Assembly: GCA_947579665.1 (NCBI GenBank)
Contig: OX388343.1
Location: forward strand, 98,213,657 to 98,277,656
Reading direction: 5' to 3'
DNA length: 64,000 nt
DNA from: Sympetrum striolatum
Taxonomy: Eukaryota; Arthropoda; Insecta; Odonata; Libellulidae
Shown here: positions 26,467 through 54,395 of the stretch, piece after piece
Layout: every line of letters starts with the position of its first letter
Numbering within the stretch: the stretch's first letter is position 1
Position numbers and translations under genes: made by a program
Notes under the pieces: generated by a model
The model's input: the letters and a program-made list of their open reading frames with translations, nothing else
What the model was told of the DNA's origin: nothing
The model's database searches: none

Positions 26467-26640
26467 ATAATTTACAATGTCTGTGGAAATCACAAAATTT
26501 TCTTTTGGTTATGGAACCTTATCTACTACAAGATTTGGCTAGAAAACATCAGATTTATACAGTAATCGTTTGTGTATATGTTTTTTACATATTTGTGATT
26601 ATTGGGATTAGATAGATATTATCGGGTAGGGATGTTACAT

Positions 26641-27830
26641 ATCCCTACCCGACCTCTCCTAACCCAACCCTCTCCCTACCCACCCTCTCTCTTCCCAACC
26701 TATCCCTACCCAACCTCTCCTAACCCACCCTTCCCTACCCACCGTCTTACTACTCACCCTCTACCAACCCACCCTCTCCCTACCCAACCTCTCTCTATCC
26801 ACCCTCTACCTTCCCACCCTCTCCCTACCCACCCTCTCTCTTCCCAACCTATCCCTACCCAACCTCTCCTAACCCACCCTTCCCTACCCACCGTCTTACT
26901 ACTCACCCTCTACCAACCCACCCTCTCCCTACCCAACCTCTCTCTATCCACCCTCTACCTTCCCACCCTCTCCCTACCCACCCTCTCTCTTCCCAACCTC
27001 TCTCTATCCACCCTCTACCTTCCCACCCTCTCCCTACCCACCCTCTCTCTTCCCAACCTATCCCTACCCAACCTCTCCTAACCCACCCTTCCCTACCCAC
27101 CGTCTTACTACTCACCCTCTACCAACCCACCCTCTCCCTACCCAACCTCTCTCTATCCACCCTCTACCTTCCCACCCTCTCCCTACCCACCCTCTCCCTA
27201 CCCAACCTCTCTCTATCCACCCTCTACCTTCCCACCCTCTCCCTACCCACCCTCTCTCTTCCCAACCTATCCCTACCCAACCTCTCCTAACCCACCCTTC
27301 CCTACCCACCGTCTTACTACTCACCCTCTACCAACCCACCCTCTCCCTACCCAACCTCTCTCTATCCACCCTCTACCTTCCCACCCTCTCCCTACCCACC
27401 CTCTCTCTTCCCAACCTATCCCTACCCAACCTCTCCTAACCCACCCTTCCCTACCCACCGTCTTACTACTCACCCTCTACCAACCCACCCTCTCCCTACC
27501 CAACCTCTCTCTATCCACCCTCTACCTTCCCACCCTCTCCCTTTCCACCCTCTCTCTCCTCACCATCTCCCTTCCCACACTCTCCATTCCTACCCTCTCC
27601 TTTCCCAGCCTCTTTATTCCCACTCTATCCTCACCCACTCTCTCCATACCCAACCTCTCCCTACCAACTCTCTTCCTACTCACCCTCTACCTACCCAACA
27701 TCTCCCTTCCCACACTCTCCCTTCCCAAACTCTCCCTTCCTAATCTCTCCCTTCCCATCTTTTCCCTTCCCACCCTCTTACTTCCCACCCTCTTACTTCC
27801 CACCCCAATTTTTTCCCTCCCCCTTCCCTC
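26641..27830. repeat. 15-bp C-rich minisatellite, left cap of palindrome
   Basis: The basic unit is about CCCTCTCCCTACCCA (15 bp). A higher-order pattern is visible: CTTCCCAACCTATCC recurs at about 26691, 26840, 27050, 27259 and 27409, spacings near 150 and 210 bp (10 and 14 units). Degenerate from 27540. A small hairpin CGGGTAGGGAT-7 nt-ATCCCTACCCG (26623-26651) marks the outer edge, i.e. one flipped unit. The G-rich strand is the minus strand. Confidence 0.95.
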
Positions 27831-29050
27831 CCTCCTCTCACATACCCTTCACTTCTTTCCATCCCTCTCTTAATCAACCTCCTCCGTCCTCTACCTTCTC
27901 TCCCTCTTGCCCATGAGATTTATTCAGAGGAAAAGTGACAGCAATACAATGAAAATTTACTGAATATATAAATTATACATCATCCTGCCTTACATATCCT
28001 TAGAAACCTGTACATTCTGCAATAGTTATTTAGGTTCAGGGTGCTAGGTCATTTCTGTATTTTTATTCTATATACATGTCAAGTTATAGGAAACTATAAA
28101 AGTTCAGGCCTTACAATTTTTAAGCTATACATGATTGAATATATATTTTGGCTCGGAAAAAATGATAATATATCACTTTTTATTCATCTAATGTGTTACT
28201 TATAAAGATGCGCATAGATCAATAAACAAATTCAATCTCTAAAGATTGAATAAACACCTAATAGATACACAAAACATAAAACTTCAAGAATAATTTTTAC
28301 CTAGCATCATCATTAGTAATATAGAAGATTAAAAGTTGAAAAAGCTTCAAATAGTATACATAGATAAAGATTCACTGAATTGTTCATTAAATAGCATAGA
28401 ATGTTATTATATGAATGGAATGTGCACTTTACTGGGACAGTTCACTTCAAAAGTCACGGATTTTATTTCACAAGGGAGTTTATATTTTATTCTTCCCAAT
28501 CCTAAATAGGTCACGATGCCGTCCCACGCCGTAGCAACACAACTTCGTCCGCGACGCCGTCCTTCGAGAAAAATAATATCTTTATATGATATAATATAAA
28601 AAAATAATATCTGTATGTAATATATAATATAAAAAATTCTCATATTTTTATGCACCTTCAATTTCCATTGCCTTGCATAATTGGTAATATAGTTTCAAAA
28701 TATAAAATAAAGCCTTTACAATGACTAGATGCCTATGAATATCTTATTGGTCTCTAAAACAGTTGCTCCGGTTTTATCCTCCAGAATGTATTTACATCGA
28801 TTGCATCAGTATATACAGGGAACACTGATAAGTACTCTAAACTTTTAGGACGAATAAAAAATTAATTAGTACTCCATGAGTTGAGGAATGTAACATAGTA
28901 GTTCTGTTGAAACTGAGGCATTGTCTCAAAACTGCAGAAGAAATATAAATTGAAAGTAAATCAATTGTGACGAAAATCGGCTGAGATTAGAGAACTTTAA
29001 CGAATTAAAAACATACACATTATCGATCATACTTAAATAGGATTTATAAT
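27831..29050. other. left arm, unique part next to minisatellite
   Basis: Mirrored at about 52.7-53.5 kb and 50.8-51.15 kb. Includes a GC-rich block with CGTAGCAACACAACTTCGTCC near 28530, matched at 52755. No gene recognised. Confidence 0.6.
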
Positions 29051-30502
29051 GACGCTTGATTAAACATGCACTTATCGTATTCTATGTTCCTTCCATGGAC
29101 CGAATCACTCTCCATAGCATCGCTGCATTCCTATTCTCGCCATGACATGAAGTAAAAAAGTTCCGTGCGTATTTCAGAAAGACAGAAAAGAAAAAATTAT
29201 TAAAACATTATTTCATAAACAAAACACTATGTTAATAAAAATAAATTAATCATTTCATCATTGTATTTTGAATTCTATCTCCGTATCTCTGTGGTACGAA
29301 TCTGCTCTCCCATGATGGAGAAATGATGCGAACATGTATGAATAGAATATACGAGTAAAATGTTGCTTGCATACTGCAAGCAGATCGACAACACTATTTT
29401 CATGTCGGCATCATATCGGGACGGCCATCAAAAGAAAAAAATGGATTGAAATTTTTCTTAAAATTCGCTAAAATTCCATCGTCTGGCATCGAACCCGGGT
29501 CATTACAGTGAACTTACTATGCAGCACAATAGAACATCACCATCTCTAACTGTGTAAAAATTCAAGCAGAAATATGGGCTACAACTGCCTCAAAAGACGT
29601 TCTAATTTTCACGAATTTAAATGGCTCTCTGGATTCGAACCAAGGACGATCTTGGAAATCTAAAAAATGTTTCTGAAAGTTATTTATGATCTCTATCTAT
29701 ATGCGGAATTTGAAGCTTCTATATTATTAGCAAAAGTTTCAAAATAATTCTTAAAAATCGGATCAACTACTGATTGCAGAGACACCTGGTGTCGAACCCA
29801 GGACACATTGATAGCTGTGAATGCACTGTTTGATTTGTATGGACTTGATCTTTCTATATGCAAAGTTTGAAGTCGATAGCATAACGGGAAGTACCTAAAT
29901 TTTGTTTCCGTTATCTCCGTAAGAAAGGCATTGAGGAATATAAATGTCCCTCTGGGATCGAACCAAGGACCATCAGCGAATATGTAAAATTCATTTATGA
30001 TATATTTTTATAATATCCAACCTCATACTGAATTTCAAGTTTCTATGGCATCGGAAAAGGGTCCAAAAAAAATCTTAAAAATCGCCACAGTGCATTTTAA
30101 ACGGCAGATTTTTGCCCCGACCTAGCATCGAACCAAGGATAATATTCGTAGATGTCTTTATGGTTTCCTTTAGATATGCGCGGCATCTAGCGATCCCTCG
30201 AGTTTCAACTCTCTCCTTTTCCGGGAAGTGCCTCAAAAAAATTTTCGAAAATCCCCGCCATGTAATCTTATGGGGAAAATCGCGACTTTGGGGCCTTCTG
30301 GAATCGAACCCATGACACTGAGGTTCAAAGTCGGCTTTTTCCTGGAGGTTGCACGTTATGGCCAATATGTCGTAAAAATTTCAAGGCATTGGCACTGTGG
30401 AACATGGTTAGAATTTTGATCCCCTATGAATGAATATATAGGTATATCCGGAGAAGCGTCTATCTATTAAATATAGATGCTTCTCCGGATTCATTCAAGG
30501 AT

Positions 30503-30546
<44 letters not shown>

Positions 30547-32420
30547 GATACTAATTCACAGCCTAAACTAGAAGCGTCATCGACTTGAAATTTTTACGAC
30601 GTATTTACCATAACGTATAACCTCCAGAAAAATTGCGATTCTGAACCTCAGTGTCATAGGTTCGATTCCAGAGGGCCCCAAAGTCGCGATTTTCCCCATA
30701 AGACTACATGGCGGGGATTTTCGAAAATTTTTTTGAGGCACTTTCCGGAAAAGGAGAGAGTTGAAATTCGAGAGATCGCTAGAAGCCGTGCATATTCAAC
30801 GAAAATCAAAAAGACATCGCCGAATATGGTCCATGGTTCGATGCTAGGTCGGGGCAAAAATCGGCCGTTTAAAATGCATTGTGGCGAATTTGAAGATTTT
30901 TTTTGGATCCTTTCCCGATAACATGGATACTTGAAACTCGGCACGTGGATATATATGTTGAATATATTTCATAACTAAATTTTAGATGTTCGCTGATTGT
31001 CCTTGGTTCGATCCCAGAAGGCCATTTGCACTTCTCAATGCATTCCTTACGGAGATAACGGAAACAAAATTTAGGTACTTCCCGGCATGCTATCAACTTT
31101 AAACTTTGCAAGATACAAGAAAAAATCTTTAAAAATCATACTTTGCATTCACAGATTACAATATGTCCTGGGTTCGACACCAGGTGTCCCTGCAATCAGA
31201 AGTTGATCGGATTTTTAGGAATCATTTTGAAACCTTTCCCAATAATATAGAAATTTGAAATTCGGCATATAGATAGAGATCATAAATAACTTTCAGAAAC
31301 ATCTTTTAGATTTCCTAGATTGTCCTTGGTTCGAATCCAGAGAGCCATTTACATTCGTGATAATTAGAACGTCTTCTGAGGCAGTTGTAGCCAATATTTC
31401 TGCTTGAATTTTCACACATGGTTAGAGATGATGATCTTCTATTGTGCTGCATAGTTAGTTCACCAGTAAGACCCTGGTTCGATGCCACTCGATGAAATTT
31501 TAGCGAATTTTAAGAAAAATTTCAATCCTTTTCTTTTTCTTTTGAGGATTGTTCCGATATGATGCCGATATGAAATTAGTATTGCCGATCTGCTTGCAGT
31601 ATGCAAGCTACATTTTACTCGTATATAATAGATATCCGGAGAAGCGTCTATATATAATAGATAAAAAAGGAAATGGAATAGTAATTCGAAAACAATTAAT
31701 ACCAGGTTAATCCGAAAATAAGCACTTTGTAGCATAAATAAATATTAATAGCAAAAATATTAGATTTATATTATAGAATTGGAGTAGTATTAACATTAGA
31801 TTCAATTTGTGCTCATCGTATTCTGTGTTCCTTCCATGGACCGAATTACTCTCTACAGCATCTCTGCATTCCTACTCTCGCCCTTCCATGATGCAGAAAA
31901 GTTCCAAGCGTATTTCTGAAGGATAAATTTAAAAATAATTAAAAAAAATTATCTCCAAAACAATAATAAATATTAATTAAAAAGATGGTACTACCTATGA
32001 TACTTGTACATGAATAGTTATAAAATTAGATTCAAATTATACTCATTGTATTTTGAATTCCATCCGTGGAGCGAATTTCTCTCCTCCGTATCTATGCGCT
32101 CATAATCTGCTTTTCCATGATGAAGAAATGATGTGAGCGTATTTCCGAGAAATAACTGAAAAACAGTCAATGAAGTATTATTTCGAAAACAGATAACTCT
32201 ATGTTAATCTAAATATACGCACTACTGATCATACTCTAAAACGAATAGCAGAAATGTTTTATTCCTTTTGTACTTATTGTATTTAGTGTTCCATCCCTGG
32301 ACTGAATATCTCTCCTCCGTATCTCTTTGTTCTTACTTATTACCTTTCCGCAGCTTCGCTGCACTCCTTTTCGTTTTTCAATGATAGAGTAATGGTTTTT
32401 TGGCTTGTCAGACCGTTGAG
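29050..32420. repeat. ~220-240-bp satellite-like tandem units, left arm (interrupted)
   Basis: Units carry TTCCATxxxTGGACxGAAT, CTCTCCxxxGTATCTCTGCxTTC and CCATGATGxAGAAA. They recur near 29085, 29280, 31830, 32045 and 32290; the B-box element at 29351-31653 has inserted into the run. Mirrored at 49430-50740. Confidence 0.7.
29351..31653. mobile_element. palindromic element of ~168-bp B-box modules, 2.3 kb
   Basis: Two ~1.13-kb copies stand head to head around a hairpin at 30446-30490 (ATCCGGAGAAGCGTCTAT, 7-nt loop, inverted copy). The outer ends are ACGAGTAAAAT...ATTTTACTCGT. Each half has six GGTTCGANNCC motifs in the same order: minus strand near 29488, 29632, 29790, 29958, 30124, 30299; plus strand near 30655, 30833, 31003, 31170, 31325, 31470. 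A (GATA)n tract lies at 30500-30545. A further TIR-like copy ATCCGGAGAAGCGTCTATAT lies at 31633-31653. The mirror position in the right arm (about 50.5 kb) has no such element. Confidence 0.85.
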
Positions 32421-32701
32421 GAATACCGGAATCTCAAATATCTCGCTTATTTATTTAATATTCTGAAAATACCATTTAAAAATAACAACTCTATTTGGAA
32501 CAATCGCAAGATGTCGATTGATAATTCTTGGTTGAACGCCATGTGGACATCACTCCACAGAAGCCGAAATAAATCATCCAAAAGTGAGAGAATTCACTTC
32601 CTCGGAACTTGAGAAAGAAAGAAGCCCAATTTAATTCAGAATTTACAGAGATTATTGTTCAAAGAGAGATATATAATCTGAAAAATATCTACCAAAAACA
32701 C

Positions 32702-33200
32702 GATTTCATGGCTTTTGTGAATGAGTCACCTGCCACCCATTTTGCAAAACATCTCTTTGAAAATAAGCATTCCATCAGTTTTTCTCCCGACCTTTTATGT
32801 TTCGAAAATAAAGATAAACGTCTCAATGCCTTGGAGCAGTTCGAAATTATACGACGTTCTACACAAAGTAATCACTTTCTCACGAACGAGTACCTATTTC
32901 AAACCCCCTCCCCTATCCTCCACGCTGCCCTTTCCCCTCCCCCTTCTTTCACTGGCGACACTACCACCTCTTGCGTTCCCCCTTCCCTTCAGACTCATTC
33001 CCATCCCCCTCCTGATTTGTCCTATATCTATTATATATAGATTATACCACTGTTTGGTGAAATTATGGTTTGTGTTGACCTGATGATGGTGGAGTTCCAG
33101 CGAAACCGGTAGTCTTTTTTTTTATAAAACCTGTGGAAAAGAGAACATCTGTCTACTTCCATAAGAATGGATTTCCACAACATCAAGGCCGCTTCCGTCG
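32702..33200 (+). pseudogene. Penelope-like element: endonuclease-region remnant and 3' tail
   Basis: The frame to 33040 reads ATHFAKHLFENKHSIS ... ENKDKRLNALEQFEIIRRST ... FLTNEYL. This is the C-terminal part of Penelope-like elements around the GIY-YIG nuclease (SxFAxHLxxxxHxIxx...KxxxLNxLExxEI). After a Pro-rich stretch comes CTGATGATGGTGGAGTTCCA then GCGAAACCGG (about 33079-33108), a hammerhead-like core, and a T-rich tail. The right palindrome arm lacks this segment, which fits a 5'-truncated insertion. The first part of the open frame (32609-32701) belongs to the arm, not to the element. Confidence 0.75.
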
Positions 33201-33411
33201 ATTTTAATATTTCACTTATTCTACACAAGTGAATATATATTCATTATTCAAGAACTACATGTCTGGAGATTTTGAATTGATTTATGAAATAGCCATAGGA
33301 AGATGGAAATCTTCCTCCTAAGGGATGGATGATACAGTAATGATGGACGGTAAAATACAATTTTGAATTTAAATAAAAATATAGTTGATATGATTTCAGT
33401 AGATATTATAT

Positions 33412-34150
33412 ATAAATGACCTCTAAAAATTGAGACATAATTGCTTGATGATTACAGTCCAGCTGTTATGTAGTATTCAAAATCGATTCTAAAAATTACG
33501 ACTTTCAATACGATTTCTGGTTAGAAAAACTTCGACCCCAAAGTCTGGCGGATGGATTCATGAAAACAAAGAACAAATGGAATCTGAATTATAGAAGTTC
33601 GTTTAACTGTAATTCAAGGTTAAAGAAAACGAAAAATAACATCGACTCGAGAAATAGCTGACTAATCTGTCAATGTCACAGCTAAAACACCTTATCTGCT
33701 AACTCGTACAATATGTTTGTCATAAGAATCGAAGTGATATATTTTGTGCTCAATTGCAAAAATAAAGCTTTACAAATTGATCTAGAGTAATTCATGATAA
33801 TAAACTCACTTACCAAATAAATGAGAGCCCCGACGAAGTCCACGAAAATCTTGACCTCAGGAAATATCAACTTATTTAATGAATATACACTTTTCTAATA
33901 AAATTAATCAAACATTAATTAAGTTAAACTTCGAAATTTGTTCGAATACGCTCAGTTTCGAACCTATTGTCCATCTACAATTCAAAATATAACGGCTTTC
34001 TCGAAAATAAGACCGGCAGCAACTTCTCACTAGGTGACGATTTCGTAGATAATAAAGTTTAAACCTTTAGAATAAAAATGGAACCAAATACAGCGATGTG
34101 ACTGGTCGTTGATTAAACTAATATTTACTCCCTGTTTATCTACCAAGGTT
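33412..34150. repeat. left-arm-only segment (~740 bp) with an exon-like block
   Basis: The right arm joins the flanking sequences directly (TTGATTTGATTTCAG then ATAATAGTATTCATAAATT, about 47828-47845). Inside, on the minus strand, an 81-nt open block (33814-33894) lies between TTTTATTAG and GTAAGT and encodes LIFPEVKIFVDFVGALIYL. It resembles the exon-like block at 38750-38816. It may be an insertion here or a deletion in the right arm. Confidence 0.5.
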
Positions 34151-35146
34151 AATAGTTTTCATAAATTATAATCACCACCGTAATAAGATTTAATCAAAAG
34201 CAAAACAATTCAATTTAAATTTAAAAGATATTGTAAAATTTATATTAATTTTTAACTCCTTGATAATATTCCGCGTAGATTTCTCGTCTCCCCCGGGTTA
34301 CGTTATGACTCATAGTTAAATAACTTCAGCGATATATCTAATTATGCGAATATTTTTTGTGAAAAGACTCGAATAAAAACAATTTAATTTTAAATGCAAA
34401 TATTGTTTTATATCATGTGAAAGAATAAATGAAACGGGACAAAGTGAGCATCGATCTGCGAATTTAAATCGGACATAATTTTATTAGGATATCTAAAGCA
34501 TTGATGTAATTATAGTAAAAACGTAAAAATAACATCGAATTTCCGAGAAATATTTATTTTATACAAACAATAACTCTTATAACATTTACTTTTTAATCGT
34601 GGAATATCTCTCCAAGGTAATGAGGTGAGTACACACTAATGTTATGATACGTAGCTAGCAATAATATTTTCTCTGTCAAGAGAAAATATTGCAATAGTAT
34701 CATACTTTTTATTATGCTACACAATAAAATTCCTGAATGTAGTACTTCATCAATGCTTCCTTCGATGGAACATCTTGGGACGCAACTTAATCAAAAACAA
34801 TCAAGTCCTCGTATATAAGAAAAATTGCTCAATTAGCACGATAATGATCTGATTGGCGTTTTCGTCCAAGTGAATTAATCTCAAAGGTATTTCATGTTCA
34901 ACTGGTACGAATTGGGATTGGGTAATGATGAAAATTTTTGAACTTCGTTTCCCTCAAACTAAACCGAAATATCACAATTTAAGGAGAGGCAAGAGATATT
35001 AATTTTCACATTTTCACAGTTCCAATCCGAGTGATATTAAGTTAACTTGAACTAAAAAAAACTCAGTACGTAAGGATGATATTTCTTAACGTTTATTCGC
35101 TAATACGCGTTTATACTATCGTTTACGTGATATTATGCAAGGTACT

Positions 35147-35251
35147 TTAGATTCCTTGGTTCGTCAGAGGTAGGTAATAGACCACTTGAACAATGAGAAC
35201 CAAAGCGAAAGAATCCAAGGTCGTTGGAACAAAATATCGAGATAAACGAAA
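35147..35251 (-). other. conserved hydrophobic open block, left arm
   Basis: 35 codons ending in TAA, including TLDSFALVLIVQVVYYLPLT, a plausible membrane span. The right-arm copy (46738-46842) differs at a single base in 105 while the flanks differ by roughly one base in eight. No upstream coding exon could be joined with confidence and I do not recognise the family. Confidence 0.35.
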
Positions 35252-35645
35252 CTCTTCACAAAAAATTGCTAGCTTACATTGAAAAGAATTTTCCCGAAAA
35301 ATGAACGGAAAGGGAGAGCTAAATCATCCTTGTGTATGTATACAAGTAACTCTCACTTCTCTTTACAGAGATTTAGAACGAGGCGGGAAAGCGAAAGTTT
35401 TTGCCTATTAAGACTCACACAGCAAAGCAACAAGCCTAATCGAAAATTATCATGGCTCCCGCAATAAAGCGCTCAACTATGACTAGTTCAGTAATAGCGC
35501 AATATCAACGACTGCCGATGAATATCATCGTAGAATTCTATGTCAATCTATTTTTCTCTATATGAAGGGCTTCTCATATCCTTAAGCATGACAGAGCGCA
35601 GTATATTTTTTTTCTTATGTCGATGGTCAATGTCATTCCACCTAT

Positions 35646-36433
35646 ACTGCCGATGAATATCATCGTAGAATTCTATCTAAAGTTCGGGTTAATACCATAT
35701 AACGATAACTCTCATCGTTATATGGTATGGCTGTAGGAAGTTAAACCTGCCACCATTTCCTTTTATGGATATTAAAAGTAAACGCGAAAAGTTATGCGTT
35801 TATTAGTGACTTATGGAGAAATGCACCATATCTAAATCTAGTAGATAGGAAAGGAAAAGAAAAAAATCTGATATGGCCAGCACAAGATTCTCTCCGTATA
35901 TAAGATGTAAATTTTTATCGACGAGATTATTTTCTAACTCTATATTATCTAGTAAATCAGTTAACCGGAAGTTGGGCGTTACTTTTCGAAGTCCGTTTCC
36001 GTTTTTGCAAAATATCTCCATAAAAATGATATCAAGGTATACATTATTAATTATAAAGTTTTAGAAAATAAAATTTACAATAACTTTTGAATGATATATA
36101 TTTTTGTATAACTGAATTTTTAGGAGTTATTCATGAAATCCTGATAAACCGGAAGTTGCTGATTATGTACTTTGTGGGCGCTCTGTGCGATGTAGCCGAA
36201 AGACCAATTTCGTCAACTTTTCATCGAACATGTCCCGAAAAACATTATTTATAATGTTTGCGACGTAAAATATAATATGATATAAAAATTAATCACTTAT
36301 CTTCCGAGGTTAGATTGAATATAGTTTGAAAATACTCTCATAGATAAATATTTACATCTTATATATGGAGAAAGTCATGTGCTGGCCACATCGAATTTTT
36401 TTTCTTATGTCGGCGATATCTGTCATTCCACCT
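35646..36433. repeat. left-arm-only insertion containing a TIR element
   Basis: Bounded by two imperfect copies of TTCTTATGTCG...TGTCATTCCACCT (35608-35645 and 36398-36433); the right arm has one copy (about 46344-46382). It includes a hairpin at 35692-35728 (ATACCATATAACGAT, 7-nt loop, inverted) and a palindromic element at 35861-36404 whose ~50-bp TIRs begin AAAAAATCTGATATGGCC and belong to the modular repeat family of 1205-2060. Confidence 0.65.
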
Positions 36434-37853
36434 CCTTGTCCGCAAAATGCGAAAGAGTGAAAAAAGGTAAACGGAGAGGTCAGAATACCGGATTAATCTT
36501 TGAAAAGCGACAGCGAAAGTTTAATAAACGATTGAGTTGCAGAGAATTAATTCAACGACCATAAAAAGCTCTGAAAAAGTGAAGAAACTACCTAGGCTCT
36601 TTTAATATTCTATTACATTTCAATCGTTGCTTCGACAGCGAATATATATATTAATACCGAAAACATGCTTTACCATCGGTATGCACTTGAGTTACGAAGA
36701 GGTATGGAAAGAGAGCATCGTCGACTGAATAATATGATTAGGCATGCAATCTCAAAGTAAAGGTTTAAGATTCACATTTTAACATAAATTCTTAAGGTAT
36801 AGGTACAAAAAACGAATATTTAGAATAATTCGTAGCTATAACGAGGTGTTCGAATTTTGGAAAGAGCGGCTTAGGACTGAAGTCCGCCTCAGCCCATGTA
36901 AATCACTGTTGCGTACAAAATCGCAAAATTATTGCCATTTGCTTCACTTCGGCTAGTTTCCTTTCTCAAACGTTGGCTATTCTTCCACAAATATGTCGAA
37001 GCGGATTAGAGTTTCGGAACGATATTTGCAAATATCAACAAATTATATGGCTCGTGAATACCTAAAATTGATCGTGTCACATGGTCTAGTTCTATGTAAA
37101 AAGGCTTACATAGAGTTGGAATAATATTCTTTAAAACGAGTTTAAGTTCACAGTAAACCTGCGATAGACTATTTATTTACGGAAAGTGATATAATATCTA
37201 TGCTTATGTAAAAAGCGTTATTCTATAAGGGGGGGTAAATGCTAGCGACAATTTTCAACAGGGCTTGAGATAATTGATAAGAAAGCCTATTAATAGTTTT
37301 ATCTGATTAAATCATAACGATTACGAGTTACACATACACTGTAAGTTAGTGTCAGCTGATGGCCAGTCGAGATGAAGGGGAAAAGAAGGAACCATATACC
37401 GAACCTACTACTACCGATTATCTTGCAAAACATATAAAATCAATAAATTACACAGTGCTTTTCGAAGGTTCCAAACTATTTCAACCAAGCATTCTTTCAC
37501 TTGAACGTCGAATTTAAGAATATTAACAAGTGCCATTACATGACGAAGAACTCTCAATAAAATATAATGTAAGGTTAGAGCATTAAGTGAGCTTACCAAA
37601 TAGATCAAATTTCGTTCCTCACGTTTCTTCCGCGAAGGTTATTCCGTGGACATTCCCTTTCGAAACGAAGTAATGCAGATGCCTATCGATGTGAAAATTG
37701 AAAGTTCAGCTTTTAAAAACTGGAATAATAGAAATACCTAATTAGTAAAACAATAATTAATTTCATTCAGAAAAGTACTGTACAAAACGCCCATGAGCAT
37801 GTATTTTATATAACGGATAAGTTTAAAATTAGAATGTCCGTTATATGAAACCC

Positions 37854-37879
37854 AAGGCCCTCTATATAGAGGGCCTTGA
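37854..37879. mobile_element. 26-bp perfect palindrome with 8-bp target duplication (hAT-like)
   Basis: Two back-to-back 13-mers, CAAGGCCCTCTAT and its complement, with no loop. Flanked by ATGAAACC on both sides (37846-37853, 37880-37887). The right arm has a single ATGAAACC (complement of 44316-44323) and no insert. An 8-bp duplication and a CAAGG end (YARNG) are hAT hallmarks. Confidence 0.65.
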
Positions 37880-43383: not shown

Positions 43384-43450
43384 AAAAGAAAGACCGACGT
43401 TTGAAGACCTGAAGATGTTTGTGGTCGTCACCGAGGATTTCCTTTTAATG
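43384..43450 (+). other. exon-like block A, right arm
   Basis: Same 67-nt block as 38750-38816, between CCTTAG and GTAAGT, encoding ERPTFEDLKMFVVVTEDFLL. It starts after one base of a split codon and ends in phase 0. No neighbouring exon could be assigned. Confidence 0.35.
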
Positions 43451-44759
43451 GTAAGTTGAACGAATAAACCTTATTCAAATATTGATTGCAATCTTGCCTT
43501 GAAGATATAATTGCTTTTGTGAGCTAAAAGTTCCGGTATTTTAGAAGTTGTAGTCGCGGAATTTCGTGTGTATGTGTATAATATATTGAGTTCGGGCATC
43601 GCTTAAATCCTAACTTACATACATAATGCACTCGCATAAAATTTAGCCCCCACGTCTTTTTCGATCAAAATTCGATTTAGTAATCATATTTGAAATTGAT
43701 TTGATAACTACCTTCTGTTTAAAGTTCTTGAGAGGCTGACGTAAGCAAATTCAAGAAAATTCTGTTGAAACTTAAATGATCAATGGTAATACCCCCCCCC
43801 CCCGAATGTTTAATTTAAGGAAAATTTTAACGCATGTGGGACTCGAAACTGGAATCTCCTAAACACTCGCTGATTACACTATCCGTCCGGCATAATTATC
43901 GGAAATCAGTATTTGAAAATTGCTGTTGGCGCTCCATGCTGATTCAAACTACACATTTTCATGCTTAGATTTTTGATTTCTTATATTTCAATTCTTGCAA
44001 TGCCATCGTTGGGATTTAACGGTGTTCTTATTTCCATACGATCTATATTTGGTTTAGTTTTCTGTTAATTAAAGATTATTACTATTCCTTGAGCTTTCGA
44101 TTAAAATTTATCCTTCTTAAACATTGTATTGATAAATACGTTCTGTGTTTTAATCCCAAAATCTATCGCCGCTATTTCATTTGAAGAAATCGAAATAGTG
44201 ATTTTTTTCGATATTCAACACTTTTCCTGAAAATTTGTGACTTTAATTATCCGATTGTTAGCATTCCACCTGTCCTTTGTCTTATATCTAAAACCAAAGA
44301 TGGCGCTGAAATAGTGGTTTCATATAACGGACCTTCTAATTTTAAACTTATCTGTTATAAAATATACCTACTCATGGGCATTGAGTACAGTAATTGTCTG
44401 GATGAAAGTAATTGATGTTTTACTAATTTGGTATTTCGGTTTTTTTACGTTTTAAAAGCTGAACTTTCAATTCTCTCATCGATGGGCATCTGCTGTACAT
44501 CGTTTGGAAAAGGAATGTCCACGGAATGACCTTCGTGGAAAAACGTGAGGAACGTAATTTGATCTATTAGTAAGCGCACTTAATACTCTAACCTTACATT
44601 GTATTTTATTGAGAGATTTTCGTCATGTAATGGCGCTTGTTGATATTTTTAAATTTGCCCTTCAGGTGAAAGAATGCATGGTTGAAATAGTTTGGAATCT
44701 TTGAAAAGCACTTTGTAATTTATTGAATTTAATCTCTTTTGTAAGATAATCGGTATTAG

Positions 44760-45418
44760 TTGAAACTTGATTGTGCCTGAAATTCCGATATTACTGTTAG
44801 GGATGTGAAAGTAATGGAACGCGTTTTAATCAAGTAACTCCGCTTTTTTAAGTAAGACAATGCTAAAAGGCATACCAATTCAAAGCGAAATGAAGCGGGT
44901 ATTTATAATCGAATGCTCTTCCTCTCTACAAAAAATGTGTTATTTAAGTGTAGAGCTCGAGTTATTCAAGATTATGATAAGTAATTATCTCTAGCTTTAC
45001 AGTGTGTATATAGCGATAGTTATTGGATTTTATAAAATAGGAAATATCTCGAGGAAAACTTTCCCCGTATTTACAGCACGATTATAAGTCAACTGCGTAA
45101 GCAAATTTTTCTTCTCTATATTCGTTTTAGGCATCAGAATGAAGAAGTTGTTTATTGCATCGCGAGTTAATTGTATTACGAAAACTATAATTTATCTCGT
45201 GCCTTTCAAGTGTATATCTGAAGTATAAATGTAGTTATTCATTGATGCTGATTGTAATTTTTCAAACGAGAGCTGGACATAACTCGGATGGTTTCGATCA
45301 TTTCATATTTATGAATTCTATACCATAATTTGGATGGTTTTTCATTGCTGGAAGGTGCTGCATTAGTTTTTTAAGTATCGAATTACGTTTTGCAGTACAA
45401 TTATGTCGTGTAGCAATA
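44760..45418. other. right-arm-only segment (~660 bp)
   Basis: No counterpart in the left arm, where its borders meet near 37400. No gene recognised. Confidence 0.45.
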
Positions 45419-46132
45419 TGGTTCCTTCTTTTCCCCTTCATATCGACTGGCCATCAGCTGACACTAACTTACAGTGTATGTGTAACTCGTAATCTTTATG
45501 ATTTAATCAGATAAAACTATTAATAGGCTTTCTTAGCAATTATCTCAAGCCCTGTTGAAACTTGTTGCTAGCATATACCCCACCCATAGATATTATATCA
45601 CTTTCCGTAAATAAATAGTCTATCGCATGTTTACTGTGAACTTAAACTCGTTTTAAAGAATATTATTCAAACTCTATGTTAGCCTTTTTAGATAGAACTA
45701 GACCATGTGACACGATCGATTTAAGGTATTCACGAGCCATATAATTTGTTGATATTTGCAAATATCGTTCCAAAACTCTCACCCGCTTCGACATATTTGT
45801 GGAAGAATAGCCGACGTTCGAGAAAAGAATCTTGCCGAAGTGAAGCAAATGGCAATAATTTTGCGATTTTTACGCAAGAGTGATTTACATGGGCTGAGGC
45901 AGACTTCAGTCCTCAAGCCGCTCTTTCCAAAATTCGAACACCTCGTCATAGCTACGAATTATTCTAAATATTCGTTTTTTGTTCCTATGCCGCAAGAATT
46001 TATGTTAAAATTTGAATCTCAAACCTTTACTTTTCGATTGCATGCTTTATCATATTATTCAGTCCACGATGCTCTCATTCCATACACCTCTTCGTAACTC
46101 AAGTGCATACCGATGGTAAAGCATGCTCTTCG

Positions 46133-46161
46133 GTATATATATATATATATATATATATATT
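46133..46161. repeat. (TA)n microsatellite
   Basis: About 14 TA units. The mirrored site in the left arm (about 36640-36655) is much shorter, so it expanded after the arms separated. Confidence 0.8.
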
Positions 46162-46737
46162 CGCTGTCGAAGCAACGATTGAAATGTAATAGAATTATTA
46201 AAGAGTCTAGGTAATTTCTTCACCTTTTCAGATCTTTTTATGGTCGTTGAGTTAATTCTCTTTAACTCAATCGTTTCAAAGATTAATCCATTATTCTGAC
46301 CTCTCCTTTCACTTTTCTTCACTCTTTCATATTTTGCGGACAAGGAGGTGGAATGACATTGACCATCGACATAAGAAAAAAAATATATTGCTCTCTGTCA
46401 TGCGTAAGGATATGAGAAGCCCTTCACATAGAGAAAAATAGATTGAAATAGAATTCTACTATGATATTCATCGGCAGTCGTTGATATTGCGCTATCACTG
46501 AACTAGTCATAGTTGAGCGCTTTATTTCGGGAGCCATGATATTTTTCGATTAGGCTTGTTGCTTTGCTTCGTGAGTCATAATAGGCATGAACTTTCGCTT
46601 CCCCGCCTCGTTCTAAATCTCTGTAAAGAGAAGTGAGAGTTACTTGCATATATACTCAAGGATGATTCAGCTTTGCCTTTCCGTTCATTTTTCGGTAAAA
46701 TTCTTTTCAAAATTAGCGAGCAATATGTTGTGAAGAG

Positions 46738-46842
46738 TTTCGTTTATCTCGATATTTTGTTCCAACGACCTTGGATTCTTTCGCTTTGGTTTTCATTGTT
46801 CAAGTGGTCTATTACCTACCTCTGACGAACCAAGGAATCTAA
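46738..46842 (+). other. conserved hydrophobic open block, right arm
   Basis: Mirror of 35147-35251 with one base change (Leu to Phe) in 105 nt and the same terminal TAA. Unknown family. Confidence 0.35.
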
Positions 46843-48029
46843 AGTACATTACATAGTATCACGTAGACGATAGTATAATCGCATAAACGTTAAGAAATAT
46901 TATCCGTATGTACTGAGTTAATATGTAGTTCAAGTTAACTTATTATCACTCGGATGGGAGCTGTAAAAATATGTCATATGAAATCTTAAATTTAATATCT
47001 CTTGCCTCTCCTTACATTGTGATATTTCGGTTTAGTTTGAGGGAAACGAAGTTCAAAAAGTTTCATCATTACCCTATCCAAATTCGTACCAGATGAACAT
47101 CAAATATCTTTGAGATTAATTCACTTGGATCAGAACGTCAACCAGATCATTATCGTTTTAATAGAGCAATTCTTCTTATATTCGAGGATTTGATTGTTTT
47201 TGATTAAGTTGCGTCCCAAGATATTCCATCGAAGGAAGCATTGATGAAGTACTATATTCAGGAATTCTATTGTGTAGTATAATAAAAAGTATGATACTAT
47301 TGCATTATTTTCTCTTGCCAGAGTAAATATTATTGCTAACTACGTATCATAACATTAGTGTGTACTCATCTCATTTCTTTGGAGAGATATTCCACAATTA
47401 AAAAGTAAATGTTATAAGAGTATAAAATAAATATTTCTCGGAAATTCGATGATTTTTTTACGTTTTTACTTTAATTACATCAATGCTTTAGATATCCTTA
47501 TAAAATTATGTCCGATTTAAATTCGCAGATCGATGCTCACTTTGTCCCGTTTCATTTATTCTTTCACGTGATATAAAACAATATTTGCATGTAATATTTA
47601 ATTTTTTTTATTCGAGTCTTTTCACAAAAAATATTAGCATAATTAGATATATGGCTGAATTTATTTAACTATGAGTCATAACCTAATCCGGGGTAGACGA
47701 GAAATATACGCGGATTATTATCAAGGAGTTAAAAATTAATATAAATATTTCAATATCTGTTTAATTTAAATTGAATTGTTTTGCTCTTGACTAAATCTTA
47801 TTTCGGTGGTGATTATAATTTATGAATACTATTATCTGAAATCAAATCAACTGGATATTTATTTAAATTCAAAATTTTATTTTACCGTCCATCATTACTG
47901 TATCATCCATCCCTTAGGAAGAAGATTTCCATCTTCGTATGGTTATTTCATAAATCAATTCAAAATCGCCATACATGTAGTTCTTGAAACCTGAATATAT
48001 ATTCACTTTTATAGAATTAGTGAAATATT

Positions 48030-48900
48030 ATTTTAGTTTTCGAGTCTTCATTTTCAGGAAGACAGTTTGAAGGTGTAATTTTAAAATTTAATGGAAGTCT
48101 AAGATTTGTCACGTTCCTCTTCTTGGTGCAACCCGTCAAGAATATCGGATATAATTATTGGTAATATTACCTGATTATTTTAGGCGATACTTTCAATAGT
48201 CGTGTAGAGGAAGAAGCTGGATAAACGCTCCAATTTTATTTTACGAGCAGTGATCGCTTAATGCATTTTTCATGCGAGTTTGCGTTGGGAAATCTTAATC
48301 AGAATTAGATTTTTCGAAATAACTTATAAATAGTAAAAACAGAGAGATAGAAAACGTTACGTAATGTTTTATAAAATTAATTTGGGGTTAGTAACGGATG
48401 TCAATAACTGATGCCATATCAATGGGGTTTAGTTTTGAATCTTAACTTGTTTTTTTCGAATAGTTATCGTTCAAATGATTTCTTTCTGAATACCTTTCCA
48501 TCTATATAAGATTAAAATTTAGCTTGAGGATTATTCTTAAATAATAGGTACATACTGATTCTCTCAAAAAAGTTAATTTTTATTTTCACTCTAGAATCCT
48601 GAGTTTCTATCAGTTGTGAATTCTTAATATTTAAATTAACTTCTGTTTAAGATGTTTGCTATCACAGTATTTTGTCTTCAACTGTACTACTGGAGTTGAA
48701 TTTCGGATATGATCATTCATAATATATTCCAAAGACTTAAGTAAATACTTTCTACTATTCTTGTAACGAAAGTTCTGAAAAATTTGAAATGATGATTAGT
48801 TATCATTTTAAGCATCTTGCTTATTCATTTACTAATAATATTTCATTTTGCTTTGACATTTTTATTGGATTCAAATAGAGATTTTAAATTAGCAATAAAG
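48030..48900. other. right-arm-only segment (~870 bp)
   Basis: Occupies the position where the left arm carries the Penelope remnant (32702-33200). AT-rich, no coding block recognised. Confidence 0.4.
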
Positions 48901-49177
48901 GAGCAGGTTGTAGTGTTTTTTGTAGATATATTTCAGATTATGTATCTTTCTTTTTACAATATTCTCTGTAACTACGAAATTAAATTGGGCTTCTTTTTTT
49001 CTCAAGTTCCGAGGAAGTGAATTCTTTCACTTTTGGTTGATTTATTTCGGCTTCTGTGGAGTGATGTCAATAGAGCGTTCAACCAAGAATTATCAAGCGA
49101 CATCTTGCGATTGCTCCATATAGTTTAATTATTATGAAATGGTATTTTCAGAATATTTAATAAATAAGCGAGATATT

Positions 49178-49400
49178 TGAGTTTTAAAAGACTTCCATGG
49201 AACCAGGTACTTCAATGGATGGGGGGGGAGGCTCCCGAATAGTCATGATGACTGCGCGTTTTTCTTTGGTAGAAGTGGTCCCTGGTTCGATTCCCAGGGA
49301 GGACAAATGCGCGGAAAGACCTGTCGAAGCACTTTCAACAATATTGCTAGTACTACAAGGAGGGGTAATATTACTCTCGTGATCAGTTATATTATTTTTT
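49178..49400 (+). mobile_element. tRNA-derived SINE with empty site in left arm
   Basis: AGTCATGATGACTGCGCG (A-box-like), then GTCCCTGGTTCGATTCCCAG (B box in a TpsiC-like stem-loop) at about 49278-49297, and a T-rich 3' end. The left arm reads straight across (CGGAATCTCAAATATCTCG near 32430), so this is an insertion into the right arm. Related to the SINE at 11781-11862. Confidence 0.7.
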
Positions 49401-49429
49401 CCGGTATTCCTCAACGGTCTGACACGTCA

Positions 49430-50740
49430 AAAAACCATTACTCTATCATAGAAAAGCGAAAAGGAGTGCAGCGATGCTGCGGAGAGATAATTGATCCATG
49501 TATGGAAAATTGAAAACATTGAGTATAATTTGAATAAAATGTACAGTAAAGTAGTGTACATGCATATTATACAGTTATTACTTTAGTAGAGTAAATACAC
49601 TACTAAAGTAATAACTTACTTAGTAAGTACTAAGTAAAGTATATAATCAAATAGACCCTATACTCTAACAAATGTTTGAATGAAGAGTACTTTATTATGA
49701 TTGGTATTATTACTATTATATTAGTATTTTGGATTAACACAGGTTTTTTGTTTTCGAATTGTTATTTTATTAACTGTTTCCTTATTTTTTCTTTAGAATC
49801 ACACTCGAAACTTTCCTATATCTTGGAAGACCGGAGTAAGAACACAGAGATACGGAGGAGAGATATTCAGTCCAGGGATGGAACACTAAATACAATAAGT
49901 ACAAAAGGAATAAAACATTACTGCTATTCGTTTTTGAGTATGATCAGTAGTGCGTATATTTAGATTAACAAAGTGTTTACTGTTTTCGAAATAATACTTC
50001 ATTTATTTCTCGAAAACGCCCTCACATCATTTCTCCATTATGGAAGAGCCGATGAGGAGCGCAGAGATACCAAGGAGAGAAATTCGGTCCAGGGATGGAA
50101 TCCAAAATACAATGAGTATAACTTGAATCAAATATTATTAGTATTCATGTTCAAGTATGATAGATAGTACCTTCTTTTTAATTAACGTAGTGTTTTTGTT
50201 TTGGAGATAATATTTTATTAATCATCTTTAAATTCATCCTTCAGAAATACGCTTGGAACTTTTCTGCATCATGGAAGGGCGAGAGTAGGAATGCAGAGAT
50301 GCTGTGGAGAGTAATTCGGTCGATGGAAGGAACACAGAATACGATGAGTGCAAATTGAATCTAATGTTATTACTACTCCGATTCTATAATATAAATCTAA
50401 TATGTTTACTATTCCTATTTAATTATGCTACAAAGTGCGTATTTTTGGATTAACCTGGTGTGAATTGTTTTCGAATTACTATTCCATTTCCTTTTTTTAT
50501 ATATTCTATTCATACATGTTCGCATCATTTCTCCATCATGGGAGAGCAGATTAGTACCGCAGAGATACGGAGATAGAATTCAAAATACAATGATGAAATG
50601 ATTAATTTCTTTTAATTAACATAGTGTTTATGTTTATGAAATAATGTTTTAATAAATTTTTCTTTTTTGTCTTTCTGAAATACGCACGGAACTTTTCTAC
50701 TTCATGTAAGGGCAAGAGTAGTTACTACTACTATGTTACA
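49430..50740. repeat. ~220-240-bp satellite-like tandem units, right arm
   Basis: Units with GCAGAGATAC, GGAGAGA, CCAGGGATGGAAxxC and AATACAATGAGT recur near 49470, 49845, 50065, 50300 and 50555. Mirror of the left-arm run and not interrupted by the B-box element. Confidence 0.7.
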
Positions 50741-51154
50741 TTCCTTAACGCATGAAGTACTAATTAATTTTTTATTCGTCCTAAAAGTTTCGAGTACTTA
50801 TCAGTCTTCCCTGTATATACTGATGCAATCGATGTAAATACATTCTGGAAGAAAAAACCGGAGCAACTATTTTAGAGACCAATACTTCATTTAACGTATC
50901 GTAAACGGTTATTAAAATTGCTTCCTAAACGTAAAATGAAATCCATATCAAAAAATTAAGGTAGAAACGTGTTTTATTTATTTTGCATAATGGCTTGCTG
51001 TTCCATCACAATGAAAGCCGACCCTTTATTGTAAGATATTCATAAACAGCTAGTCATTGTAAAGGCTTTATTTTATATTCTGAAACTATATTACCAAGTG
51101 TGCAACGCCAACGGAAATTGAAGGTGCATAAAAAGATGAGAATTTTAATTCCGA

Positions 51155-52715
51155 TTCCTTTTATCGGTCGTTTAATTTTACATTCCGTTAGATGTTTTTA
51201 GAAATTTCTAGTAACTATCGAAAATATTCTAAATTTGACGATTAAAAAGAATTTCGTTACCTTGCTGAACAACGTTATTGTTAATTCAGCGCATTTACGT
51301 TTTTTAAGATAATTTACGCCATTTTAATAGAATATTGTAATACTAACCACTTATCAGAAGAGTAATTTTTTATGGGACTTTTCGGTCAGGATAAATAAAT
51401 CGCTGGTTGAAACTTACGATCTTGTATCGTATGTTGATCATTAAACATCTTCGTATTGGCAATAGTTTGTTAAATGTTCCTGTTAAAACTGTTTCTGTGA
51501 TTTTTTATATATAAAGCTAAAACGACTGATATAAAGAGAAATACGCTGGATTATTAGTTTTTGGGTTTGCGCTGATAATCTTTCGTCAGTTCATCTTTTT
51601 TAGAGTGCTTCTTTCGTAATTTCAATGAGAGTACGACTTTCAATGACAAAATTATGTTTACATTTTAAACGTTCTTTCATATTCCGATTTCGTTCTATCA
51701 TTTTCTTAAATAAAGTTAAAGAGAGAAACAAGATTGGCGATCAAGGAGATGTCACTTACCGTGTGATTCTCATCTAAGTTAATGATGATTCATAAATTAT
51801 AGAATGAATACATAGACGGCAAAGATTAGTGCTGTGGATGAATAATTATGGTTTGAGCATTGTGTACTTAGATTTTTCAAATCCGGGAATAATGTCGGCA
51901 TAGTTAAAGATGGCATTAGTTCAATATGTTTTCCCTTTCATCCCTTCCGTTTCGGCTCTAATATCAGCTTTAATTTCTTTCTATTCACAGAGATTATTAT
52001 CTCACTTTCATTTTCTCCTTTTTGTTAGCAGAGCGGAAGTACATGTCGTTTAGGAATCACCTAAGGTCGATTCTTCCTCGAATTTCAATTACTGCCATTC
52101 CTAGAATTTTTTCACAGTGGTTCGTGCCATTTTCACCTTACGGTCTTTTCACAAGTTCAAGGTCTTGTTTTCAAATACAATCTCCGACGTTGTAAACAGA
52201 GTCTTATATGTCTTAATGCAAAGGTTCCACCTCTAAGATTCTTGCGTTGGTTTGCACCTTAACTTTTTTTCGCGAAATGTCAGATAAACAAATTAATTAT
52301 AAAGGAATCATACATTATGAAAATCTGATTAAGTTATATATTGATGTATTTTTTCATCATTATCTTCCACTGGATATACCTGTATCTCTATTTTTTTTCG
52401 CTAATACACGCTTAGTATTTATTTAGTATGATTTTAAATAATGATCTTCCAAAATTAGGGTCAACACAAGAATAATTATTGAGAGTTTTCAGTAAATATT
52501 CTTAATTATTAAATTTCAGATGAGGTAGTAGAAATATAATACTGAAACATGGAGGTTCTCTAATTTAAGACGCATCCTGAATTGACTTTTTGTGTAGATT
52601 AATAACATTGCGTTATAACAGACTGTTGTGCTTTGCGGAGTCTCCGTTTATGCGATACATGATTTAAGTACTGAAAAATGTGTGTCGTGTCTAAGTTTCG
52701 TTTTGAGTGAATAAT
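51155..52715. other. right-arm-only segment (~1.55 kb)
   Basis: Left-arm homology stops at about 28640 and resumes at about 28580, opposite these borders. No gene or repeat family recognised inside. Confidence 0.5.
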
Positions 52716-53519
52716 ACAGATATTATTTTTCTCGAAGGACGGCGTCTGGGACGGAGTCGTGTTGCTACGGCGCGGCGGGGGACGGCATCTGAACCAATTT
52801 AAGATTGGGAAGAATAAAATATAAACTTCCTTGTGAAATAAAATCCGTGACTTTTGAAGTGAAATGAAGTTTCCCAGTAGAGTACATTCTAGTCATATAA
52901 TTACATTCCAAACTATTTAATGAACAATCAACTGAAAAATTCAGTGAATCTTTATCTATGTATACTATTTGAATCTTTTTCAACTTTTAATTTTCTACAT
53001 GACTAATGATGATACAAGATTAAAATTTATTTTTGAAAGTTTATGTTTTGTGAATCTATTCGGTATTTATTCAATATTTAGAGATTGAATTTGTTTATTG
53101 ATCTATGCACATCTTTATATATAACACGTAATATGAATAAAAAGTTAAATGTTAATATTTTTTCCGAGCCAAAATATATTTTCAATTATGTATAGTTTAA
53201 AAATTGTAAGGACAGAACTTGTATTGTTTCCTATTACTTGAAATGTATATATAATAAAAATATAAAAATGACCTAGCACCCTGAACCTAAATAACTATTG
53301 TAGTATGTATAGATTTCTAAGGATATGTAAGGCAGGATGATGTATAATTTATATATTCTGTAACTTTTCATTGTATTGCTGTTACTTTTCATCTGGATAA
53401 ATCTAATGTTGAAGAGGGAGACAAGGTAGAGGATGGAGGAGGGTAATTAAAAGAGGGATAGAAAGATGTGAGGGGTATGTGACAAGAGGGAGGGAAGCAG
53501 AAGGGTAACAAAAAATTGG

Positions 53520-54395
53520 GGTGGGTAGTAAGAGGGTGGTAAGGGAGAGGGTGGAAATCGGAGGGTGGGATGGGAGACGGTGGGAAAGAAGAGGGTGGGA
53601 TGGGAGACGGTGGGAAAGGAGAGGGTGGGGAGGGAGAGGGTGGGAAGGAAGAGGATGGGTAAGGAGAGGGTGGAAAGGGAGAGATTGGTTAGGGAGAGGG
53701 TGGGAAGGGAGAGGGTGGGAAGGGAGAGGGTGGGAAGGGAGAGGTTGGGTAAGGAGAGGGTGGGTAGGGAGAGGGTGGGTAGGGAGAGGGGAGAGGGTGG
53801 GTAGGAAGAGGGTGGGAGGGAGAGGGTGGGTAAGGAGAGGGTGGGAAGGGAGAGGGTGGGTAGGGAGAGGGTGGGGAGGGAGAGGGTGGGAAGGGAGAGG
53901 GTGGGTAAGGAGAGGGTGGGAAGGGAGAGGGTGGTTAGGGAGAGGGTGGGTAGGGAGAGGGTGGGTAAGGAGAGGGTGGGTAGGGAGAGGGTGGGTAAGG
54001 AGAGGGAGGGAAGGGAGAGGGTGGGTAGGGAGAGGGTGGGGAGGGAGAGGGTGGGAAGGGAGAGGGTGGGTAAGGAGAGGGTGGGAAGGGAGAGGGTGGG
54101 AAGGGAGAGGTTGGGTAAGGAGAGGGTGGGGAGGGAGAGGGTGGGAAGGGAGAGGGTGGGTAAGGAGAGGGTGGGAAGGGAGAGGGTGGGTAAGGAGAGG
54201 GTGGGAAGGGAGAGGGTGGGGAGGGAGAGGGTGGGAAGGGAGAGGGTGGGGAGGGAGAGGGTGGGAAGGGAGAGGGTGGGTAAGGAGAGGGTGGGAAGGG
54301 AGAGGGTGGGAAGGGAGAGGTTGGGTAAGGAGAGGGTGGGAAGGGAGAGGGTGGGAAGGGAGAGGTTGGGTAAGGAGAGGGTGGGAAGGGAGAGT
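53520..54395. repeat. 15-bp G-rich minisatellite, right cap of palindrome
   Basis: About 58 copies of GAGAGGGTGGGWARG-type units, regular to the base except a few short slips (near 53790). The G-rich strand is the plus strand, mirror-wise to the left cap. Each unit has two to three GGG runs, so the whole array fits G-quadruplex motifs. The long open frames on both strands follow from 15 being a multiple of 3. Confidence 0.95.

What the first reader, a model, noticed from the sequence alone, without database searches (positions are those of the whole stretch)
26641..54395. A ~27.8-kb mirror-image palindrome between two CYP4 genes
Two arms of 14.9 and 12.7 kb match in mirror order from the terminal minisatellites to a 157-bp loop. 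Divergence is roughly 10-15% by eye, so this is an old inverted structure and not an assembly fold-back of identical strands. No transposase is seen. It could be a giant foldback-type element (foldback elements have long inverted arms with terminal tandem repeats), an inverted segmental duplication, or a structure made by template switching. Transcribed, it could form very long double-stranded RNA feeding siRNA or piRNA pathways. I know of no described element with this architecture.
Basis: partly seen in the sequence, partly recalled or inferred. Interest (0 to 1): 0.9.

Follow-up and report, generated by a model that had tools for sequence, protein, structure and literature searches.

The report
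Giant palindromic jumping-DNA family in dragonfly
The mirror-image stretch is one worn copy of a repeated, roughly 20-38 kb mobile-DNA family in what looks like a dragonfly genome; its two long arms have been kept alike by DNA copying between them, while a short central piece has stayed different.

Summary
The palindrome is real: left arm 26640-41554, 157-bp loop, right arm 41712-54412; outside the arrays the arms are 90.9% identical over 7,875 columns. It is not unique. The genome it lies in (1.35 Gb, probably a dragonfly) holds at least 40 palindrome centres with the same loop (40 of 40 scored candidates, window included; 195 of 235 unscored). Six further copies read out have the same plan.

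The minisatellites are not the ends. On 10 of 13 arm ends examined an outer domain follows; it also exists alone as a 5.2-5.4 kb inverted-repeat element. Its terminus, CAGTCATTTGCATAAGTCTGTGGGC, is preceded by TA at 21 of 27 ends read. Two palindromes carry it at both ends: 20,778 bp (TA/TA) and 38,592 bp (TG/TG). The window copy has neither.

Within a copy the arms are about 70-90% alike in the inner ~1.2 kb and then, in 5 of 7 copies, mostly 93-100% for several kb. Trees sort the core by side and the outer arm by copy or close-copy group.

Best reading: a non-autonomous TIR transposon family of foldback-like architecture with arm-to-arm gene conversion, probably moved by a Tc1/mariner-type transposase, which was not found.

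The parts
26640..27907 (.). left minisatellite (15-bp unit, C-rich on +; G-rich strand runs 5'->3' outward); here the left edge of the truncated copy
   Evidence: arrays in other copies
27908..40282 (.). left arm
   Evidence: homologous to six other copies
40283..41554 (.). left core flank (old asymmetric zone)
   Evidence: blocks at 77.7% and 73.9% identity to the mirror (gaps counted); side-specific in 7 of 7 copies
41555..41711 (.). single-copy loop, 157 bp
   Evidence: spanned by 40 of 40 scored genome matches
41712..42883 (.). right core flank (old asymmetric zone)
42884..53518 (.). right arm
53519..54412 (.). right minisatellite (G-rich on +)
54418..57013 (.). outer domain: truncated, interrupted relative of a standalone 5.2-5.4 kb TIR element; inner transposon end at 54418, outer end missing after 57013
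38286..39298 (.). patch 98.6% identical to its mirror (conversion-like)
   Evidence: log-likelihood ratio 54 against a permutation maximum of 12.8
29352..31651 (.). stretch absent from the right arm: itself a palindrome of ~1.1-kb units with repeated GGTTCGA motifs
39334..40282 (.). stretch absent from the right arm: single unit of the same repeat
33418..34149 (.). stretch absent from the window's right arm but present in C5 and C8b copies, so a right-arm loss is as likely as an insertion
35644..36394 (.). stretch absent from the right arm, partly local duplication; parts present in other copies
51147..52713 (.). stretch absent from the window's left arm but present, whole or in part, in C8b and C1 copies
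44761..45383 (.). stretch absent from the left arm

Best explanation
This is a truncated, aged copy of a non-autonomous TIR DNA-transposon family whose members are giant palindromes. Plan: CAGT terminus - outer domain (a ~5-kb TIR element, variably shortened) - G-rich minisatellite - long arm - asymmetric core with 157-bp loop - the same in mirror order. SHOWN: many genomic copies with the same centre; the common terminus near eight centres, two of them complete; TA before most termini read; outside the core, arms of one copy (or of a group of close copies) more alike than arms of different lineages; and a core of about 1.2 kb per side whose asymmetry predates all seven copies compared. INFERRED: a Tc1/mariner-type transposase acting in trans on the CAGT ends; gene conversion between the paired arms as the homogeniser; and either pairing geometry near the loop, or loss of copies whose centre became a perfect palindrome, as the reason the core is spared.
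For: Copies: arm query 42 matches, many as inverted pairs (40 of 458 candidates scored); core query 40 of 40 scored candidates span the loop at 85-100% (195 of 235 unscored). Six fetched copies share arms and core, with arrays C-rich left and G-rich right in 11 of 12 outer pieces. Termini: BLAST similarity among C5-left, C1-left and C8b-right stops within 9 bp of CAGT; 157 genome hits for the 25-mer with up to one mismatch, 0 for the reversed pattern; TA before 21 of 27 termini read; C10 complete at 20,778 bp with TA/TA; C5 complete at 38,592 bp with TG/TG. Of 48 centres, 8 have a listed inward-facing terminus within 30 kb (8.9-16.1 kb) and 0 an outward-facing one. Homogenisation: within-copy identity steps up at 0.8-1.4 kb from the centre. 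Core segment: 78-83% within copies, tree splits arms by side, support 1.000; outer segment: C1 and C5 arms are sisters, support 1.000 each.
Against: 40 of 48 centres had no listed terminus within 30 kb (only 100 of 157 hits were listed, at most one mismatch). TA beside a terminus is also what a lone outer-domain insertion gives, so it does not by itself prove that the giant moves as one unit; no empty site was shown. Of 27 termini, six lack TA: C5's two ends have TG (one reads CA inward), three others have CA and one AC. For three of the eight centres with termini I did not read the DNA between. The window copy has neither terminus. C9, C11 and C26 are 98.7-99.4% alike in the compared arm (same sides) and C9/C11 99.8% in the outer domain, so those may have spread by segmental duplication. 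No transposase was found apart from a 131-aa DDE_Tnp_1_7 fragment inside the window's outer domain, and the genome search for one never ran. W and C8b do not sort by copy in the outer segment. In C1 one 258-column bin at 4.5 kb is only 81% and the 1-4.5 kb part is missing from that chain, though one search has 1.0-3.6 kb at 93-100%.
Confidence: 0.8

Rival explanations
1. A palindromic low-copy repeat spread by segmental duplication: an old inverted duplication that happened to include transposon copies at its edges and was then copied around with flanking DNA.
For: C9_R and C11_R are 99.8% identical over 2,960 bp and the C9/C11/C26 arms 98.7-99.4% side for side; termini occur at regular spacing on C302 and C49; such repeats exist in insects (An. 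gambiae 2Rj, PMC1952172, passages); 40 of 48 centres have no listed terminus.
Against: Similarity among C5, C1 and C8b ends at the CAGT terminus; two complete copies with matched 2-bp flanks; distances from centre to terminus are 13.6-16.1 kb in 7 of 8, all inward-facing.
Confidence: 0.13
2. Single-locus inverted duplication or fold-back of the CYP4 interval, ended at the G-rich arrays by replication template switching.
Against: 39 further centres elsewhere with the same loop. It may still describe how the first palindrome arose, long before this locus.
Confidence: 0.02
3. The within-copy likeness is not ordinary conversion: each copy re-forms its arms when it moves (for example copying one arm from the other during repair after excision).
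For: In C9 the homogenised zone is collinear with few gaps from 1 to 8 kb, and C1 arms are 98-100% over most of 5-12.5 kb, as one large event would give.
Against: W and C8b show mixed old and young patches (38286-39298 at 98.6% beside about 85%), more like repeated short tracts. Mechanistically this is still templated copying between arms.
Confidence: 0.3
4. Assembly artefact: haplotypes or chimeric reads joined head to head.
For: Long inverted repeats are hard to assemble; arms in several copies are nearly identical.
Against: Arms of the window copy differ by 9% with arm-private stretches; the same asymmetric core recurs at 40 places.
Confidence: 0.03

Closest known systems
Foldback transposons (FB, Galileo, Tetris, Tm1)
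   Same: Long inverted arms with variable tandem-repeat domains, a middle domain, mostly non-coding.
   Different: Loop to terminus about 9-16 kb (25 kb on C5's right side with nested elements), against the 1-2 kb maximum stated in 2007 (PMC1952172) and up to 1,735 bp in Tetris (PMC4079207); 2-bp, mostly TA, flank instead of the 8-10 bp duplications of Tm1 and Tetris.
Tc1/mariner-type non-autonomous elements and MITEs (recalled, not from a call)
   Same: CAGT start and TA flank; 0.5-kb and 5-kb relatives with the same ends.
   Different: 20-38 kb palindromic body; no transposase of that type seen.
Palindromic low-copy repeats of An. gambiae inversion 2Rj (PMC1952172)
   Same: Insect, non-coding, long inverted arms (5.3 kb), patchwork of repeats.
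   Different: Those are two insertions, described as lacking target duplications and terminal subrepeats; here at least 40 centres, arrays and defined termini.
Mammalian X/Y palindromes (PMC8981503, PMC6790999; start of abstract in the search listing only)
   Same: Arm-to-arm gene conversion keeps arms alike.
   Different: Those are sex-chromosome palindromes, often gene-bearing; here a dispersed repeat family with a shared unconverted core.

Membership tests
Foldback (FB-type) transposons | long inverted arms around a short middle domain | tested here: met
Foldback (FB-type) transposons | tandem-repeat domain within the arms | tested here: met
Foldback (FB-type) transposons | 8-10 bp target-site duplication (as in Tm1 and Tetris) | tested here: not met
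Foldback (FB-type) transposons | multiple dispersed copies | tested here: met
Tc1/mariner superfamily | TA target-site duplication | tested here: inconclusive
   TA before 21 of 27 termini; four of five two-ended elements TA/TA (L038, L039, L042, C10), one TG/TG (C5); no empty site shown
Tc1/mariner superfamily | inverted termini beginning CAGT (motif recalled) | tested here: met
Tc1/mariner superfamily | DDE/D transposase in an autonomous member | tested here: inconclusive
   Long ORFs in fetched copies were retroelements or had no Pfam match (9 ORFs; ORF lists otherwise judged by eye); genome search for PF13358 not answered
Inverted segmental duplication at one locus | one or few copies sharing flanks | tested here: not met
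   similarity of three copies ends at the terminus

The most novel reading that the evidence does not exclude
A transposon class built as a self-homogenising palindrome: inserted copies keep their two ~10-kb arms alike by intramolecular gene conversion, while a fixed asymmetric core of about 2.4 kb is excluded from conversion in every surviving copy, either because pairing cannot start that close to the loop or because copies that lose the asymmetry become unstable. The core would then be the part that lets a ~30-kb palindrome persist and move.
Probability: 0.35. Interest if true: 0.88.

Novelty: new variant of a known kind. Interest (0 to 1): 0.76.

Why it matters
Long near-perfect palindromes are generally unstable (general knowledge), yet this genome holds at least 40 centres of one whose arms, in the seven copies read, are near 10 kb or more. 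Because these share one origin and one core, they are replicates of the same palindrome, which makes two open questions directly testable: how close to the centre of a palindrome gene conversion can reach, and what asymmetry lets a long palindrome survive. If the 20-38 kb units really move as units, they also extend the stated arm length of foldback-type elements several-fold to tenfold and suggest very large cargo for a TA-targeting transposase. This copy sits inside a CYP4 gene cluster; such copies could seed inversions or, if transcribed, long double-stranded RNA.

Tried and rejected
Rejected: one-locus fold-back duplication ended at the G-rich arrays. Rejected: the minisatellites as element termini. 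Rejected: the outer domain as chance neighbouring insertions; it lies in the same place and orientation on 10 of the 13 arm ends compared (absent on W_L, C8b_L, C1_R; C26_L not seen; C10, read later, has it on the right and only an 80-bp terminus on the left). Rejected: rising divergence near the loop as merely faster mutation; it is an old split shared by all seven copies. A possible exon in the conserved patch led nowhere. Led nowhere: Rfam at gathering threshold, tRNA scan, Pfam on arm and flank ORFs without a clear match (part), CYP4 exons inside the arms (none at E 1e-3 with 120 proteins), homologues of one RT-like ORF (none at E 1e-5), exact-pattern scans of viral and prokaryote contigs (0 matches), the first guess at C10 ends, a global MAFFT alignment that misplaced insertions (replaced). 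Literature: ten searches listed no description of such a family; the library is open-licence PubMed Central only, so absence from print is not shown.

Dropped before counts: alignment bins with fewer than 60 or 100 columns; BLAST pieces below the printed score or length cut-offs; the arrays, from the arm identities; ORFs under 150 aa or repetitive. The 27 termini are those I fetched, out of 157 counted, of which 100 were listed; two of them (L047, L048) have near-identical flanks and may not be independent.
Full report
Setting. The window is C8:98213657-98277656 of a 1.35-Gb genome in 544 contigs. It holds a CYP4 gene at about 4.5-16.8 kb and the start of a second at 63.4 kb, both on +. The nearest protein to my rough splice of the first is from the dragonfly Ladona fulva, 87% over 80%, so the source is probably a related dragonfly; the species is not known.

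Observation. The palindrome is as described: arms 26640-41554 and 41712-54412, loop 41555-41711 (157 bp), minisatellites at both outer edges. Outside the arrays the arms are 90.9% identical over 7,875 columns, with many stretches that only one arm has. Identity is far from even: a 1,009-column patch at 38286-39298 has 14 mismatches, while 40899-41360, a few hundred bases from the loop, has 123 in 457.

It is a family. After many busy answers the genome search ran. A 994-bp arm query gave 42 matches, many in inverted pairs about 5.4 kb apart on different contigs; only 40 of 458 candidates were scored. A 461-bp query across the loop gave near-full-length matches for 40 of 40 scored candidates (the window included), 85-100% identical; 195 of 235 were not scored. 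I fetched six further copies (C26, C9, C8b, C5, C1, C11). All six align along the arms and through the asymmetric centre; arrays are C-rich on the left and G-rich on the right in 11 of 12 outer pieces, the exception being a C26 piece that holds a nested LTR retroelement.

True ends. Similarity between copies does not stop at the arrays. An outer domain, in the window at 54418-57013, follows the array on 10 of 13 arm ends compared. In C5-left, C1-left and C8b-right similarity stops within 9 bp of the same terminus, CAGTCATTTGCATAAGTCTGTGGGC, which occurs 157 times in the genome with up to one mismatch, against 0 for the reversed pattern. Of 27 termini read, 21 are preceded by TA, four by CA, one by TG and one by AC. 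Two palindromes have it at both ends: C10, 20,778 bp with TA on both sides, whose left end is an 80-bp terminal repeat directly followed by the array (its middle was not fetched, but the arm pair lies inside); and C5, 38,592 bp including nested elements, with TG on both sides. Among 48 centres (40, eight from arm pairs), eight have a listed inward-facing terminus within 30 kb, seven of them at 13.6-16.1 kb, and none has an outward-facing one; my own arithmetic, not a call, puts the chance expectation near 0.1 for either. The other 40 have none listed; 57 of the 157 hits were not listed. The outer domain also occurs alone as a 5,172- and a 5,372-bp inverted-repeat element, and a 518-bp element has the same ends, each with TA on both sides. 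So the giant resembles a composite: two outward-ended copies of a TIR element around a palindromic cargo.

Concerted arms, protected core. Within each copy the arms are 69-94% alike (200-bp bins) from the centre out to a step at 0.8-1.4 kb, in all seven copies. Beyond it (500-bp bins) they are 94-100% to about 8 kb in C9, C11 and C26; 93-100% in C5 to about 11 kb, with a gap at a nested element; and in C1 93-100% from 1.0 to 3.6 kb and 98-100% from 5.0 to 12.5 kb, apart from one 258-column bin at 4.5 kb with 81%. Further out, in the outer arm, arrays and outer domain, most bins fall to 70-92%, with two small bins at 96-97%. W and C8b are older and mixed, with bins from about 71 to 100%. Trees show what this means. 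For a core segment, all seven copies split by side: one clade holds the C26, C9, C11, C1, C5 and C8b left arms with the window's right arm, support 1.000, within-copy identity 78-83%. For a segment 1.3-3 kb out, C1 and C5 arms pair within the copy (support 1.000 each); for C9, C11 and C26, which group together, left arms join left and right join right (0.97-0.98), so their homogenisation predates their split; W_L joins C8b_R and W_R joins C8b_L (1.000 each), so theirs does too. Hence one ancestral palindrome with an asymmetric core, dispersed, with later templated copying between arms that stopped short of the core. A core kept by selection for stability and a purely geometric limit to pairing fit equally.

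Mechanism and likelihood. That this is a dispersed repeat family is shown (about 0.95). That whole giants move as TIR transposons is well supported but lacks an empty site (about 0.8). That the enzyme is of Tc1/mariner type rests on the recalled CAGT/TA signature and is about 0.6. No such transposase was seen: of nine long ORFs scanned in fetched pieces, five are retroelement parts (LTR elements in L009 and L020, a reverse transcriptase in L038) and four have no Pfam match at E 0.01; a 131-aa DDE_Tnp_1_7 fragment lies in the window's outer domain, mostly in a stretch not shared with the copies compared; the genome search for PF13358 never ran. Gene conversion as homogeniser is about 0.7 against re-formation during transposition about 0.3.

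Comparison. Foldback elements share the plan, but arms were stated in 2007 not to exceed 1-2 kb, and Tm1 and Tetris show 8-10 bp duplications (PMC1952172, PMC4079207, PMC3169594; passages). That feature was tested and not met, so I call this foldback-like in architecture and a TA-flanked TIR element by its ends, not a member of those families. The An. gambiae 2Rj repeats are the nearest published insect structure I found. The original palindrome may have formed by fold-back replication, which leaves a single-copy loop of this order (PMC4256205, loops of 59 and 441 nt; passages).

Noticed in passing
29347-31626 and 39334-40282; also L011, L012, L014, L024, L026-L028: A ~1.1-kb repeat with several GGTTCGA (tRNA B-box-like, recalled) motifs roughly 160 bp apart by eye, found head to head, singly and in arrays outside or within the outer domains of the C9, C11 and C26 copies; no tRNA was called in the window.
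   Followed up: partly
26622-26652: 12-bp perfect inverted repeat with a 7-nt loop at the outer edge of the left array, perhaps the scar of the truncation.
   Followed up: partly
C302:4873, 22875, 40877, 58879 and C49:91347516, 91379694, 91412148 of G000: The terminus motif recurs at an exact 18,002-bp period on C302 and at about 32-kb steps on C49, suggesting tandem arrays of related elements.
   Followed up: no
window and C8:101.92 Mb (L015-L017): Sister copies in opposite orientation 3.7 Mb apart on one contig, each lacking one outer domain, on non-corresponding arms; a potential substrate for inversion.
   Followed up: partly
55255-55647 (-): Fragment matching Pfam DDE_Tnp_1_7 inside the window's outer domain, mostly in a stretch not shared with the other copies compared.
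   Followed up: partly
58898-59623 (-) and 32588-33037 (+): Reverse-transcriptase-like ORFs, Penelope-like by eye (recalled); no Pfam match and, for the first, no homologue at E 1e-5.
   Followed up: partly
1206-2070, 8614-9308, 57012-57450: Another dispersed repeat; its copy at 57012 is where the match to the outer domain ends.
   Followed up: no
arrays at 26640-27907 and 53519-54412: In both arms the G-rich strand runs 5'->3' outward, telomere-like in orientation, and this holds in the 11 outer pieces of other copies with arrays.
   Followed up: no
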